A stretch of 64,000 nt of DNA from Sorangium aterium (lineage in GTDB: Bacteria; Myxococcota_A; Polyangia; Polyangiales; Polyangiaceae), in contig NZ_JAQNDK010000005.1 of assembly GCF_028368935.1 (NCBI RefSeq), positions 186,001 to 250,000 of the forward strand, read 5' to 3'. Shown here piece after piece: positions 16,263 through 23,398 of this stretch (the stretch's first letter is position 1; every line of letters begins with the position of its first letter). The notes below the pieces were generated by a model, which saw only the letters and a list, made by a program, of their open reading frames with translations, made no database searches and had not been told where the DNA came from. A program made the translations under genes and the position numbers.

Positions 16263-18584
16263 GTGCGCGCCCGCGTGATCCGAACCCGCCGTTCCGCTTC
16301 CGCTTCCGCTTCCGCGCTCACGCTCGTCTCCGCCGCGGCCGCGCTCCTCTCCGGTTGCACCGGGTGCGAGTCGTCGACCCGGGATCTGCCCGCCGGCGCC
16401 CCGGCCACGGCGTCCGCGAGCCCGCAGGCGGCGCCTCCGCCGCCGGCGCGCGACGTCGTACACCTCATCGACGAGCTGCCCAGCTGCGATCTCGAGCACC
16501 GCGGGCTCCTGTTCGATACCGGCGCGAACGCGCTCATCGGCCGCTTCGCGTGGCAAGGGACCGTGCCCACCGGCATCCAGGCGGTCGAGCACGATGGATC
16601 CACCTGGGCGCGGATCTCGGAGCGGCAGATCAAGCTCACGTTCGTCCTGCCGTCCGCGAGCCCCATCTTCGTGTCCGCCCGGGCCGTCGGGCTCACCTCC
16701 AAGTACGCCACCGTCTCCCTGGACGATCAGCTCCTCGGAACGCTCCGCCTCCAGCGCGACCAGATCCGCATCGCCTCGACCCCGACCACCACGCTCCCCG
16801 CCGATCCCGGCCTGCACACCCTCACGCTCCAGTTCTCCGGCCGGCTCCGCCAGGGGGAGTCGTTCGCCGACGTCGACTGGGTGCGCGTGGGCATCCCCGA
16901 CGAGGACCCGGCCACGTACGGCCCCCCGACCCTGCGGGACGTCGTGGCGCCCGCCGCCGCCCTGTCGGGCGTCCCCCACCGGTCCATCGCGCTGCGCGCG
17001 CCGGGCGCGGTCCGCTGCGCCTTTCGCCCTTCCAGGGTGACCCGCCTCCGCGCCGCCATCGGCGCGCTGGGCTCAGGAGAAGGCGACGCCGAGATCCGCG
17101 TCCTCCGCGACGGCCAGGAGCCGCTCGTGATCCAGCGCGTCCACGTCGACGGCGGCGACAAGGCGGCCTGGACTGACGTCGAGCTGCCGCTCGCGCCCTT
17201 TGCCGGGTCCCTCATCTCCCTCGAGCTCCGCGCCGCCGCCGCGGCCCGCGGCGGGCGCATCCTCTTCGGCGACCCCGTCCTCGCCGGATCGCCGGAGCCT
17301 CCTCCGTCCGTGCCCGCCGCGCGCGCCGTCGTGATCGTCGCCATGAACGGGGTCGAGCGGCCCGATCTGCCCCCCTGGAGCGGTCGTCCGGAGCCGCACC
17401 TCGCCACGCTCTCGGAGCTCGCGACGTCGGCGACGACGTTCGATCACCACCGGGGGCCGAGCACGGTCGTGTCCGCCGTGGCCGCGTCGCTGCTCACCGG
17501 TCTTCCGCCGCCGGCCCATACCGTCGCCGACACCGGGGCCCGCCTCCCTGCCCATGTCACCACCATCGGCGCCATCGCGAGCGACAGCAGCATCCGCACC
17601 GGGTTCTTCACCGGCGTCCCCACCACCTTCCGGGCGTTCGGCTTCGGGCCCGGCTGGTCCCGGGTCCTCGAGCATCCCCCGACGAGCGGCGAGCCAGCCA
17701 CCACCCCGATCGACGCCGCCGCCGCCTGGATCAGCGAGACCGTCCGTCAGGACGCTTCCAACCGCCTCCTCGCGTTCGTCCACGCGCGCGGCGGCCATCC
17801 GCCCTGGGAGGTCAGCCCGAAGGAGCTGAACGCCCTCAAGCCCGCCGATTACGCCGGCCCCGTCGAGCCGCGCCGCGCCGCCCAGGTGCTGGCCAGGCTG
17901 AGGAGCCGGCGCCGCGATGTGCTCAGCCCCGAGGATCGCGACCGGATCCGCGACCTCTTCTCCATCGCCCTCGCCGGCCAGGACCGCGCCCTCGGCAACC
18001 TCATCGGGACCCTCAAGGCCGCTGGCCTGTGGGACGACACCCTCTTCATCGTGACAGGCGATCTGGCCAGCGGGCGCTCCGACGCCGCGCTCTACGGCGA
18101 GGGCATGGACCTCCAAGAGCCCGTCCTGACGCTCCCGCTTTATGTCCACTTTCCCGGTGATCTGTACGCCGGCCAGCGCGTCGCTGCCCCGACCGAGATC
18201 ATCGACGTCGCGCGCACGGCGATCGCCGCCCTCGGCCTGTCGTTCGCCCGCAAGCCGCTCGGGAAGGATCTGGCGGCGGTCGCCTCCGGCCTCGAGGGCG
18301 TCGAGCGCGGCCCCCAGATCGCCGCCCTCGGCGATCGTTACTCCACCCGCTGGGGCAACCTCGTGCTTTCGGGTCGACTCGGCGTTCCCCCCTTTCTCTG
18401 TGACCTCGACGTGGACCCGACCTGCGCCTTCAACCGTCGCGAGGTGATGCCCCTCGCCACCGTGTCGCTCTTCCGGCGCACCGTGACGTTCGACCTGTCC
18501 GTGCGCGCGCCCGCGGCGCAACGGGAGCCGGCCACGATCGACGCGGAAACGGCGGCCGTGCTCAACGTATGGGGCGCGAACTGA
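16263..18584 (+). CDS. Sulfatase-like (alkaline phosphatase superfamily) lipoprotein
   Basis: A 773-residue predicted lipoprotein: an Arg-rich start, a short hydrophobic core and lipobox LLSGC. Residues about 60-370 contain beta-rich, carbohydrate-binding-like sequence. From about residue 355 the protein resembles sulfatases: VIVAMNGVERPDL, then a nucleophile-region counterpart HRGPSTVVSAVAASLLTGLP, and later DDTLFIVTGD where active enzymes usually have a metal-binding D-H. The usual CxPSR or SxPSR sulfatase signature and that His are absent, so catalysis is doubtful. GTG start with AGAGG upstream. Four TTCCGC hexamers (16292-16315) encode the Ala-Ser run of the signal peptide. Confidence 0.7.
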   Translation: MRARVIRTRRSASASASALTLVSAAAALLSGCTGCESSTRDLPAGAPATASASPQAAPPPPARDVVHLIDELPSCDLEHRGLLFDTGANALIGRFAWQGTVPTGIQAVEHDGSTWARISERQIKLTFVLPSASPIFVSARAVGLTSKYATVSLDDQLLGTLRLQRDQIRIASTPTTTLPADPGLHTLTLQFSGRLRQGESFADVDWVRVGIPDEDPATYGPPTLRDVVAPAAALSGVPHRSIALRAPGAVRCAFRPSRVTRLRAAIGALGSGEGDAEIRVLRDGQEPLVIQRVHVDGGDKAAWTDVELPLAPFAGSLISLELRAAAAARGGRILFGDPVLAGSPEPPPSVPAARAVVIVAMNGVERPDLPPWSGRPEPHLATLSELATSATTFDHHRGPSTVVSAVAASLLTGLPPPAHTVADTGARLPAHVTTIGAIASDSSIRTGFFTGVPTTFRAFGFGPGWSRVLEHPPTSGEPATTPIDAAAAWISETVRQDASNRLLAFVHARGGHPPWEVSPKELNALKPADYAGPVEPRRAAQVLARLRSRRRDVLSPEDRDRIRDLFSIALAGQDRALGNLIGTLKAAGLWDDTLFIVTGDLASGRSDAALYGEGMDLQEPVLTLPLYVHFPGDLYAGQRVAAPTEIIDVARTAIAALGLSFARKPLGKDLAAVASGLEGVERGPQIAALGDRYSTRWGNLVLSGRLGVPPFLCDLDVDPTCAFNRREVMPLATVSLFRRTVTFDLSVRAPAAQREPATIDAETAAVLNVWGAN
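16292..16315 (+). repeat. Hexanucleotide repeat (TTCCGC x4) in a signal peptide
   Basis: Four perfect copies of TTCCGC encode alternating Ser/Ala residues between the Arg-rich start and the hydrophobic core of the sulfatase-like lipoprotein. Gain or loss of a unit would change the signal peptide length by two residues without a frameshift. Confidence 0.85.
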
Positions 18585-18939
18585 GGCGCGCGCGATCGAC
18601 GCACGCCCGCGCCTGCGAGCCGGGGAGAGCCCGCTGACGGCGCCCGGCGGCGCGCCGGCGCCCTGCGCGGGCGAAGGCGTCCGCGACATCGCGCAGGCCG
18701 CGCGCGATCACGCTCCAGCGGTGCCATGACGCCTCGCTGCGGGGCAGCACGCCCCGCGTCGCGCGCGCCGTGACGCCCCCGCGCGGGTTGGCCGATCGAC
18801 GTACGCCCGCGCCCGCGCGTGCGCGTCGTGCGCTCGCTTCGCGCGCGGAAGGCGCCTGGCATGCTTCGCGCAAACCCCGCAGACCGCACAGGCCAAGCGC
18901 CTCGACGGCGCTTCATCATTCCGTGAGAGGAGTCCCCGC
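18585..18939. other. 355-base intergenic region before the HHE gene
   Basis: No gene supported. It contains two related stretches (around 18593-18625 and 18790-18830), each starting GATCGACG(C/T)A and running into CGCCCGCGCC-like sequence, so it may be an old imperfect duplication. Minus-strand open frames here are Arg-rich artefacts of GC content. The promoter of the HHE gene should lie in the right half; I see no convincing -35/-10. Confidence 0.5.
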
Positions 18940-19701
18940 ATGAAGGCGACCGACCTATTGAAGGAGCATCACCAGGAAGTCGAAGAGCTCTTCGAGCGCA
19001 TGTCGCAGGCTGACAACGACGAGATCAGCGCGCTCCGCGACGAGCTCGTGGCGACCCTCGTGAGCCACTCGGCCATCGAGGAGGAGCTCTTCTATCCCGA
19101 GAGCCGGGAGGCGCTCGGCGCCTCCCCCCTGATCCCGACCTCGTACGAGGAGCACGCGCTCGTCGACGTCATGTTGCAGAAATTGCTCAGCGCCGAGCCG
19201 GGTGACGAAACCTTTCACGCCAGGCTCGACGTGCTGAAGGAGCTCGTGCAGCACCACGTCGAGGAAGAGGAGAAGGAGCTCTTCCCCCAGGTCGAGAGCG
19301 CCATGGGCGCCGAGCGCCTCGAGGAGCTCGGCAGCCGCCTGGCCATGCGCTTCGGCCAGGTGCGCGAGAGCGACGTCGAGGCGCTCCTCGCTCGGAACGT
19401 CGCGAAGAGCATGCCCGCCGCCGGCCGCCGCGCGCGCGCAGCGAAGCCGCAGGCGCGCAAGGCGGCGGCCAAGCGTCCACCCGCGAAGCGCGCACCGAAG
19501 CGCGCGTCGACGCAGCGCGCCGAGCCGGCGCGGGGGGCGCAGAAGGGGCGCCGCACCGCCGCGACCGGACGGAAGAAGGCGGCGGCCACGCCGCCCACGA
19601 AGACCGGGCGAGCCGCGCCCGCGCGCAAGGCGAGCCGGCCGGCGAAGACCAGCCGCACGGGCCGCAAGGGCGGTCGCGCGAGCAGCGCCTCCGCGCGCTG
19701 A
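18940..19701 (+). CDS. Hemerythrin HHE-domain protein with histone-H1-like tail
   Basis: 253 residues in two parts. Residues 1-150 are a four-helix hemerythrin-like domain with candidate iron ligands His10/His11, His43, Glu47, His72, His105/106 and Glu110. Such domains bind a di-iron centre and sense O2, NO or iron, or protect against oxidants. Residues 155-253 are almost entirely Lys, Arg, Ala, Pro, Thr and Gly (KAAAKRPPAKRAPKRAS type), like eukaryotic histone H1 tails and bacterial H1-like nucleoid proteins. No signal peptide. The tail suggests DNA or RNA binding. The start ATG has a GAGAGGAG site upstream. Converges on the SRAP gene. Confidence 0.85.
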   Translation: MKATDLLKEHHQEVEELFERMSQADNDEISALRDELVATLVSHSAIEEELFYPESREALGASPLIPTSYEEHALVDVMLQKLLSAEPGDETFHARLDVLKELVQHHVEEEEKELFPQVESAMGAERLEELGSRLAMRFGQVRESDVEALLARNVAKSMPAAGRRARAAKPQARKAAAKRPPAKRAPKRASTQRAEPARGAQKGRRTAATGRKKAAATPPTKTGRAAPARKASRPAKTSRTGRKGGRASSASAR

Positions 19702-19737: not shown

Positions 19738-20583
19738 TCAGCGGCGCGAGGTCCGGCCGGAGGGGACGGCGGGCCTCGCGCCGCCATCGAGATCGAACAG
19801 CGGAAGCGTGCCGCCGGCCTTCGGAGAAGCGGCCTTCGGGGCGGCGGTCTCCGCCGCGAGCTCCTGCAGCAGGGCGGGGTCGTCGTGGGCGACCGAGTTG
19901 ACCCGCGGCGAGACGGCGCGCGCCGCGAGGGCGCCGCGAGGCGCCGGCCGGAGCAGCGCCTCGGCCCGATCCGCGTCCGCGCCGTCACCGAGGCCGAGCC
20001 AGAGGTCCACGTCCCCGGGGCCCAGCAGGACCGGCATCCGGTCGTGGATCGGCGCGACGTCGGCGTTCGCCTCGGTGGTCAGGAGCGTGAAGCGGAGGTC
20101 GGGCTCCCCCGTGTCGGCGTCCTTCGCCGGCTGGTACAGCCCCGCCAGGCGGAGCAGCCCGCCCTCCGCGGGGTGGAACCAGGTGGGCCGCCGCGCGCCC
20201 TTGGGCCCGGTCCACTCGTAGAAGCCGTCCGCCGGCACCACACAGCGGCGCGCCGCGAACGCTTCGCGGAACGTCGGCTTCGCCCGCGCGCTCTCCGCCC
20301 GCGCGTTGGCCAGGAGCGAAGGCCCGGCGCCGCCCCTCGCGAATCGACCCAGGAAACCCCAGGTCGCCGCCTCCAGCGCGCGCCGGCCGTCCCGAGCGCG
20401 CAGCACCGGGTGGACGGTCGCAGGTGCGATGTTGAAACGAGGCCGAAACCTTGCCGCTATCTCCGGATCAGCGGCAATCGGCCGAGCCGGACCGCCGCCT
20501 GCTCGGCCCCCGCCAGAGGACGACTCGAGCAGCGCGATGAGGGTCGCAAAGTCCGGAACGGCGAGGGTGAAACGCGCGCACAT
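19738..20583 (-). CDS. SOS response-associated peptidase (SRAP, YedK/HMCES family)
   Basis: Forms a stable thiazolidine crosslink through Cys2 with abasic sites in single-stranded DNA, shielding them during replication. The protein starts MCARF, exposing Cys2 after Met removal. Other family landmarks are RFNIAPA, the Asn of NARAES, the Glu of DGFYEW and the His of IHDRMP. 281 residues, slightly longer than the usual 220-240 because of an insertion near residue 25 and a Pro/Ala-rich C-terminal extension. It is divergent from acnA with only 61 bases between starts, which contain an AT-rich CTAGATTAG element. Confidence 0.93.
   Translation of the reverse strand: MCARFTLAVPDFATLIALLESSSGGGRAGGGPARPIAADPEIAARFRPRFNIAPATVHPVLRARDGRRALEAATWGFLGRFARGGAGPSLLANARAESARAKPTFREAFAARRCVVPADGFYEWTGPKGARRPTWFHPAEGGLLRLAGLYQPAKDADTGEPDLRFTLLTTEANADVAPIHDRMPVLLGPGDVDLWLGLGDGADADRAEALLRPAPRGALAARAVSPRVNSVAHDDPALLQELAAETAAPKAASPKAGGTLPLFDLDGGARPAVPSGRTSRR

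Positions 20584-20644: not shown

Positions 20645-23398
<2,754 letters not shown>

What the first reader, a model, noticed from the sequence alone, without database searches (positions are those of the whole stretch)
18940..19701. Hemerythrin domain fused to a histone H1-like tail
An iron/oxygen-sensing HHE domain with all expected ligands is fused to about 100 residues of Lys/Ala/Pro-rich H1-type sequence. This joins a redox or gas sensor to a nucleoid-binding tail in one protein: potentially an oxygen- or NO-responsive chromatin protein.
Basis: partly seen in the sequence, partly recalled or inferred. Interest (0 to 1): 0.55.

Follow-up and report, generated by a model that had tools for sequence, protein, structure and literature searches.

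The report
Iron protein with DNA-tether-like tail
Sorangium and related soil bacteria make a small iron protein of the hemerythrin kind that carries a long, positively charged, histone-H1-like tail, probably to hold its oxygen or peroxide chemistry against DNA or RNA; the fusion is real and conserved, but its function is untested.

Summary
The ORF (18940-19701, +, 253 aa) is real. Residues 1-142 are a hemerythrin (HHE) domain with the full H-HxxxE-H-HxxxE ligand set, followed by a short helix to 157 and 96 disordered residues rich in Ala/Arg/Lys/Pro (net +30). The tail is no artefact: all 13 close orthologues found among 183 genomes of the order carry one (6 of 6 Sorangium, two further genera). 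Its charge density stays at 0.23-0.28 per residue in seven complete orthologues while length runs to 268 residues, and dN/dS is 0.2-0.3 within Sorangium. In a sample of the same genome the other C-termini passing the composition test sit on DNA-working proteins (AlkZ-like glycosylase, topoisomerase/RecQ, HU). New here: a sigma-54-type -24/-12 element upstream of the tailed orthologues (11 of 12 readable exactly, 12 of 12 within one mismatch). Best reading: a diiron protein tethered to nucleic acid, made on demand, doing O2/peroxide/NO chemistry at the nucleoid. Tethering to RNA or the ribosome is the main rival, because the domain resembles the ribosome-binding PA2171 family below its cut-off. 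A gas-sensing chromatin switch is possible but unsupported. New variant of a known kind.

The parts
18940..19701 (+). whole gene: hemerythrin-like protein with basic tail, 253 aa
   Evidence: orthologues
18940..19365 (+). HHE four-helix domain (residues 1-142), ligands H11, H43, E47, H72, H106, E110
   Evidence: Pfam PF01814 at residues 4-117; helices 3-23, 26-59, 64-84, 90-142 in the AF2 model, ten-residue blocks of 1-150 at pLDDT 96-98; conserved ligands
19375..19410 (+). fifth helix, residues 146-157, linking domain and tail
   Evidence: AF2 model
19411..19698 (+). disordered Ala/Arg/Lys/Pro-rich tail, residues 158-253, net +30
   Evidence: ten-residue blocks at pLDDT 52-64; composition; conserved in orthologues; dN/dS 0.20-0.31
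18857..18872 (+). sigma-54-type (-24/-12) promoter-like element TGGCATG-N4-GCGCA
   Evidence: GG and GC ten bases apart; conserved 81-97 bp upstream of the tailed orthologues in several genera
18926..18932 (+). ribosome-binding site AGAGGAG
   Evidence: sequence, identical in the five Sorangium upstream regions compared
16263..18584 (+). conserved neighbour: sulfatase-family protein
   Evidence: Pfam PF00884; synteny
19738..20583 (-). conserved neighbour in Sorangium: SRAP-family protein, convergent
   Evidence: Pfam PF02586; synteny
20645..23398 (+). conserved neighbour: aconitase
   Evidence: Pfam PF00330 and PF00694; synteny

Best explanation
A hemerythrin-like diiron protein whose disordered basic tail tethers it, without sequence specificity, to nucleic acid, most likely the chromosome. 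It is made from a sigma-54-type promoter, that is under an enhancer-binding activator and so on demand (low oxygen, redox or nitrosative stress, starvation or development), and it places O2/peroxide/NO-consuming chemistry next to DNA, comparable in purpose to Dps but with another fold. Shown here: domain, ligand residues, predicted fold, tail, conservation of tail charge, conserved upstream element, conserved neighbourhood. Inferred: iron binding, DNA binding, sigma-54 use, the inducing signal, protection as the benefit.
For: Ligand set intact. Closest solved structure is the M. kansasii hemerythrin-like protein 6q09 (Foldseek E 2.7e-6; VIA Z 18.5, rmsd 2.0 over 150 residues), an NO peroxidase with weak catalase activity (PMC8913304, abstract start, passages). 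M. xanthus relatives with the same motif bind iron; H11A and H110A of MXAN_7204 lose the diiron spectrum (PMC12753109, section 12). Tail charge is kept at 0.23-0.28 per residue over 99-268 residues in seven complete orthologues, and a tail is present in 13 of 13 orthologues above the score gap. The three other frames that passed the tail test in 864 kb are DNA proteins: AlkZ-like glycosylase, topoisomerase/RecQ, HU. A K/A/P-rich H1-like region is the DNA-binding domain of CarD in some myxobacteria (PMC9304148, passages). Basic tails also occur on HHE proteins of other bacterial groups (L016, L017, L023), and actinobacterial relatives carry Rho_N instead (31.9 and 30.5 bits, cut-off 24.9): a nucleic-acid-binding C-terminus in another form. 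Sigma-54-type element: 11 of 12 readable orthologues exactly.
Against: No DNA binding, iron or expression was measured. Basic tails can bind RNA, ribosomes, polyphosphate or membranes as well. The best named family match is a ribosome-binding protein. The acidic domain (-21) could neutralise the tail in cis. The sigma-54 assignment rests on spacing and conservation only: the sixth base of TGGCAC is T in most orthologues and the bases before the -12 GC are GC, not TT. The strict element is not enriched in the genome (6 matches against 7 for the reversed control), and NmpR-type sites do not exceed chance in the window (15 matches, 18.2 expected).
Confidence: 0.5

Rival explanations
1. RNA or ribosome tether: a PA2171-like protein that binds ribosomes and slows translation in dormancy, with the tail adding rRNA affinity.
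For: The NCBIfam PA2171 model (NF053874) is the best named family: 86.6 bits for this protein, 60-92 bits for five tailed relatives. PA2171 binds ribosomes and FtsZ and represses translation in vitro (PMC13041383, passages).
Against: Far below the curated cut-off of 190, and 0 of 60 genomes of the family pass it. The PA2171 model has 157 positions and so no such tail. The company of similar tails in this genome is DNA proteins.
Confidence: 0.2
2. Gas- or redox-sensing chromatin protein: the iron state changes how the tail meets DNA (for example by releasing it from the acidic domain), altering nucleoid structure or transcription.
For: Domain net -21 and tail net +30 in one chain, with the same contrast in the orthologues, would allow such a switch. 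Hemerythrin domains work as redox sensors in a diguanylate cyclase and an HD-GYP phosphodiesterase (PMC9388753, passages).
Against: No output domain and no sequence-specific DNA-binding fold was found. The model gives the tail no confident structure (pLDDT about 55). No data link iron state to binding.
Confidence: 0.15
3. The tail is a generic solubility, retention or condensate-forming extension (polyphosphate, membrane, self-assembly), with no specific nucleic-acid role.
For: Low complexity, repeat expansions and variable length.
Against: Positive charge density is kept across genera, dN/dS is 0.20-0.31, and untailed paralogues show that the domain does not need it.
Confidence: 0.12

Closest known systems
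Mycobacterium kansasii hemerythrin-like protein (Rv2633c homologue, PDB 6q09)
   Same: Four-helix HHE bundle with a fifth helix, same His/Glu positions by alignment
   Different: 170-residue chain without a basic tail; its Tyr iron ligand could not be placed in this protein
PA2171 family ribosome-binding persister protein (NF053874)
   Same: Best-scoring named family for the domain
   Different: 86.6 bits against a cut-off of 190; no tail in the model
Myxococcus xanthus single-domain hemerythrin-like proteins (MXAN_7204, MXAN_5531 and others)
   Same: Same H-HxxxE-H-HxxxE motif; iron-dependent spectra shown (PMC12753109); MXAN_5531 lies in the oxygen-limitation regulon of the NtrC-like regulator NmpR, for whose own operon promoter sigma-54 dependence was shown (PMC11841059, passages)
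   Different: Described as single-domain, about 150-200 aa
CarD with H1-like C-terminus (A. dehalogenans, V. incomptus)
   Same: Bacterial domain fused to a K/A/P-rich H1-like DNA-binding region (PMC9304148, passages)
   Different: N-terminal part binds RNA polymerase and CarG, no iron domain; absent from Sorangiineae according to that paper
Chlamydial Hc2 (Pfam HC2) and histone H1
   Same: Tail composition; weak HC2 matches in relatives L023 and L083 (20.5 and 18.5 bits)
   Different: No HC2 match for this protein at E 0.1; no H1 globular domain; more Arg than Lys
Dps
   Same: Idea of iron chemistry held at DNA by basic termini (recalled; a Dps review was seen only in a search listing)
   Different: Ferritin-fold dodecamer (recalled); this is an HHE bundle with a long disordered tail

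Membership tests
Hemerythrin/HHE domain family (PF01814) | Profile match over cut-off | tested here: met
   55.9 bits, cut-off 25.3
Hemerythrin/HHE domain family (PF01814) | H-HxxxE-H-HxxxE ligands | tested here: met
   H11, H43, E47, H72, H106, E110
Hemerythrin/HHE domain family (PF01814) | Diiron centre | not testable with these tools
   needs purified protein
PA2171 ribosome-binding persister family (NF053874) | Curated cut-off 190 bits | tested here: not met
   86.6 bits; 0 of 60 genomes of the family over cut-off
Mycobacterial HLP / NO peroxidase | Fold with fifth helix | tested here: met
   6q09 Z 18.5, 150 residues, rmsd 2.0
Mycobacterial HLP / NO peroxidase | Tyrosine iron ligand | tested here: inconclusive
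   Y52 is nearly invariant, but the position of the ligand Tyr in 6q09 was not given in the passages read and the structure paper is not held
YtfE/RIC iron-sulfur repair (TIGR03652) | Family model match | tested here: not met
   not among NCBIfam matches at E 0.1 for this protein
Histone H1 / HC2 | Lys/Ala/Pro-rich basic disordered tail | tested here: met
   by composition only, Arg exceeding Lys
Histone H1 / HC2 | Pfam family match (HC2 or H1 globular domain) | tested here: not met
   only Hemerythrin matched at E 0.1
Histone H1 / HC2 | DNA binding | not testable with these tools
   needs EMSA or ChIP
Sigma-54 promoter | GG at -24 and GC at -12, ten bases between | tested here: met
   TGGCATGCTTCGCGCA at 18857-18872
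Sigma-54 promoter | RpoN-dependent transcription | not testable with these tools
   needs a reporter or RNA-seq

The most novel reading that the evidence does not exclude
An oxygen-, peroxide- or NO-responsive bacterial chromatin protein built on a hemerythrin: the state of the diiron site sets whether the basic tail is held by the acidic domain or released onto DNA, so that the nucleoid of Sorangium is remodelled or shielded when a sigma-54 activator signals stress; and nucleic-acid-binding tails were joined to HHE domains more than once in bacteria.
Probability: 0.15. Interest if true: 0.75.

Novelty: new variant of a known kind. Interest (0 to 1): 0.45.

Why it matters
Characterised bacterial hemerythrin sensors are listed in a 2022 mini review as chemotaxis proteins, c-di-GMP enzymes and P-type ATPases (PMC9388753, passages). 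A hemerythrin anchored to nucleic acid would add a new site of action for this fold and a possible Dps-like way, by another fold, to protect DNA in large-genome soil bacteria. The conserved upstream element gives a direct way to find the inducing signal.

Tried and rejected
Artefact or frameshift tail: rejected (13 of 13 orthologues; dN/dS). Tail as a chance product of high GC: rejected (4 of 4249 frames). Functional link to aconitase or SRAP: the neighbourhood is conserved, but SRAP was not found beside the gene in G056 and G014, so I draw no functional inference. NmpR-type operator GCGCA-N5-TGCGC: no excess over chance in the window. Sigma-70 promoter and intrinsic terminator scans: nothing found. 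Strict element as a genome-wide regulon: no excess over the reversed pattern. A search with the tail as query found only itself in the genome (150 of 454 candidates scored). HC2 in the genome found one other protein, L138, with HC2 and TfoX_N matches below cut-off. Inverted repeats upstream: GC-rich, nothing specific. Plasmids: 61 records with HHE relatives, all under 60% identity; their tails were not examined. Literature searches for such a fusion: hemerythrin with 'histone H1-like', 'histone H1-like' with 'hemerythrin domain' and hemerythrin with 'Rho termination factor' gave no paper; hemerythrin with C-terminal, lysine-rich and DNA-binding gave one Dps review; hemerythrin with nucleoid gave 5; hemerythrin with histone gave 78, of which 15 were listed and none of those titles is on point. 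The library lacks most subscription journals.

Limits. The contig scan used six short patterns, two of them from the tail, so it favours tailed relatives and gives no frequencies. Three g15 tails (L180, L183, L185) are cut by contig ends and the G019 copy is cut at its start. In one search I used loci L072-L204 plus nine others and dropped loci with under 100 bp upstream and genes with identical first 60 residues; its Fisher values ignore kinship. L204 (net +14 after residue 150) fell just under my tail threshold there and was counted as untailed although it has the element. Of the eight other PF01814 places in the genome, five were aligned (tails 0-43 residues, L005 Arg-rich, +10) and two read by eye (L001, L002); L007 was not resolved.

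Full report
Observation. The window lies in an unnamed 13.47-Mb genome; two genomes counted as the same genus (G061, G058) have contigs of exactly the lengths of the Sorangium cellulosum So ce26 and So ceGT47 chromosomes, so the organism is a Sorangium. The ORF 18940-19701 encodes 253 aa: an HHE domain (Pfam 55.9 bits) with H11, H43, E47, H72, H106 and E110, modelled with high confidence to about residue 157 (mean pLDDT 82 overall, 157 residues at 90 or more) and a disordered remainder. The remainder is 96 residues with 31 basic and one acidic residue.

Is it more than chance. In the window plus 40 stretches of 20 kb from the same genome, 4 of 4249 closed frames of at least 100 aa end in such a segment. 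The other three are an AlkZ-like DNA glycosylase, a topoisomerase/RecQ-type protein and HU. Between this protein and two Sorangium relatives the tail shows dN/dS of 0.31 and 0.20, and 0.23 between those two.

Conservation. With the HHE domain as query, 6 of 6 Sorangium genomes have a close orthologue (75-81% identity in the five others). A profile of eight HHE domains searched in 183 genomes of the order gives 13 matches of 201-280 bits and then a gap to 164 bits and below. The 13 are six Sorangium, one genome of genus g32 and six of g15, and all 13 carry a long basic tail, three of them cut by contig ends. In seven complete orthologues tail length runs from 99 to 268 residues while net charge stays at 0.23-0.28 per residue. 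A further relative, L198 from genome G003, has a tail of net +28 over 101 residues. Untailed relatives are common: the same genomes hold HHE paralogues with 0-41 residues after the domain. Neighbours: sulfatase, HHE-tail and aconitase lie together in the six larger regions examined (So ce26, G058, G060, G032, G056, G014), not always in the same order; SRAP is present in the first four of these, and in the two contig pieces L010 and L137, which end before a sulfatase gene could be seen.

Same theme elsewhere. The contig scan brought 61 loci. Basic tails of 62-64 residues, net +19 to +24, occur on HHE proteins of a Lysobacterales MAG, a Deltaproteobacteria MAG and a Binatia MAG (L016, L017, L023). 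Three actinobacterial relatives end in a Rho_N-like segment, two over the Pfam cut-off (31.9 and 30.5 bits against 24.9) and one below (16.9). Joining an HHE domain to a nucleic-acid-binding C-terminus thus looks recurrent, though no tree was made.

Upstream element. The aligned upstream regions of eight tailed orthologues share a TGGCATG-like block and a GCGCA. TGGCAYG-N6-GCA has GG and GC ten bases apart, the geometry of a sigma-54 -24/-12 promoter (consensus recalled). It occurs once in the window, at 18857-18872 (0.32 expected; the stricter form TGGCATGNNNCGCGCA 0.00 expected). Of the 12 orthologues of the score-gap group with readable upstream DNA, 11 match exactly at -83 to -97 and So ce26 has one mismatch; L198 matches at -81. 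After removal of duplicates, 9 of 10 tailed against 3 of 56 other HHE genes have it within 150 bp, 10 of 10 against 5 of 56 with one mismatch allowed (kinship not corrected). Background: 4 matches in 864 kb on both strands, the window's own included. In M. xanthus the NtrC-like regulator NmpR, active when oxygen is limiting, needs a sigma-54 site at its own operon promoter and binds the promoter of an operon with the hemerythrin gene mxan_5531 (PMC11841059, passages). NmpR-type sites are not enriched here, so the signal remains open.

Mechanism. The nearest solved fold is the M. kansasii hemerythrin-like protein, an NO peroxidase with weak catalase activity (PMC8913304). M. xanthus proteins with the same motif bind iron (PMC12753109). 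A tail of this composition works as a DNA-binding domain in CarD (PMC9304148). I therefore favour a diiron protein tethered to DNA and made on demand, with RNA or ribosome tethering second: the PA2171 model gives 86.6 bits against a cut-off of 190, and PA2171 binds ribosomes and represses translation (PMC13041383, passages). Steps shown: sequence, predicted fold, conservation, upstream element. Steps inferred: iron, DNA, sigma-54, signal, benefit.

Verdict. Real, conserved, and an unusual combination for which I found no paper in the searches named under Tried and rejected; both modules are known, so it is a new variant of a known kind.

Noticed in passing
window 18857-18872 and upstream of L103, L105, L106, L083, L089, L090, L181, L198: Sigma-54-type element conserved upstream of the tailed HHE genes; several HHE genes of the family below the tail threshold (L072, L087, L199, L204) have similar sites 29-47 bp from the start.
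   Followed up: partly
L052, L062, L027: Actinobacterial HHE proteins with a C-terminal Rho_N-like domain, two over the Pfam cut-off; L091 of the family of the window's genome looks similar by eye but gave no Pfam Rho_N match.
   Followed up: partly
window 18940-19374 against L011: Fourfold sites differ at 6 of 56 in the HHE part but 26 of 57 in the tail, against 0.17-0.35 in neighbouring genes; the low rate in the domain part is unexplained.
   Followed up: no
window 19411-19413: An ATG at residue 158, at the start of the tail and kept in the six Sorangium copies, could in principle start a free basic peptide.
   Followed up: no
L162:14207-18829: One open frame joins a type IA topoisomerase with a RecQ-like helicase and ends in a basic segment.
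   Followed up: no
L138 (G000:C2 near 845148): Small protein with a weak TfoX_N match and a classic KKAPAKKA tail, a second H1-like tail protein in this genome.
   Followed up: no
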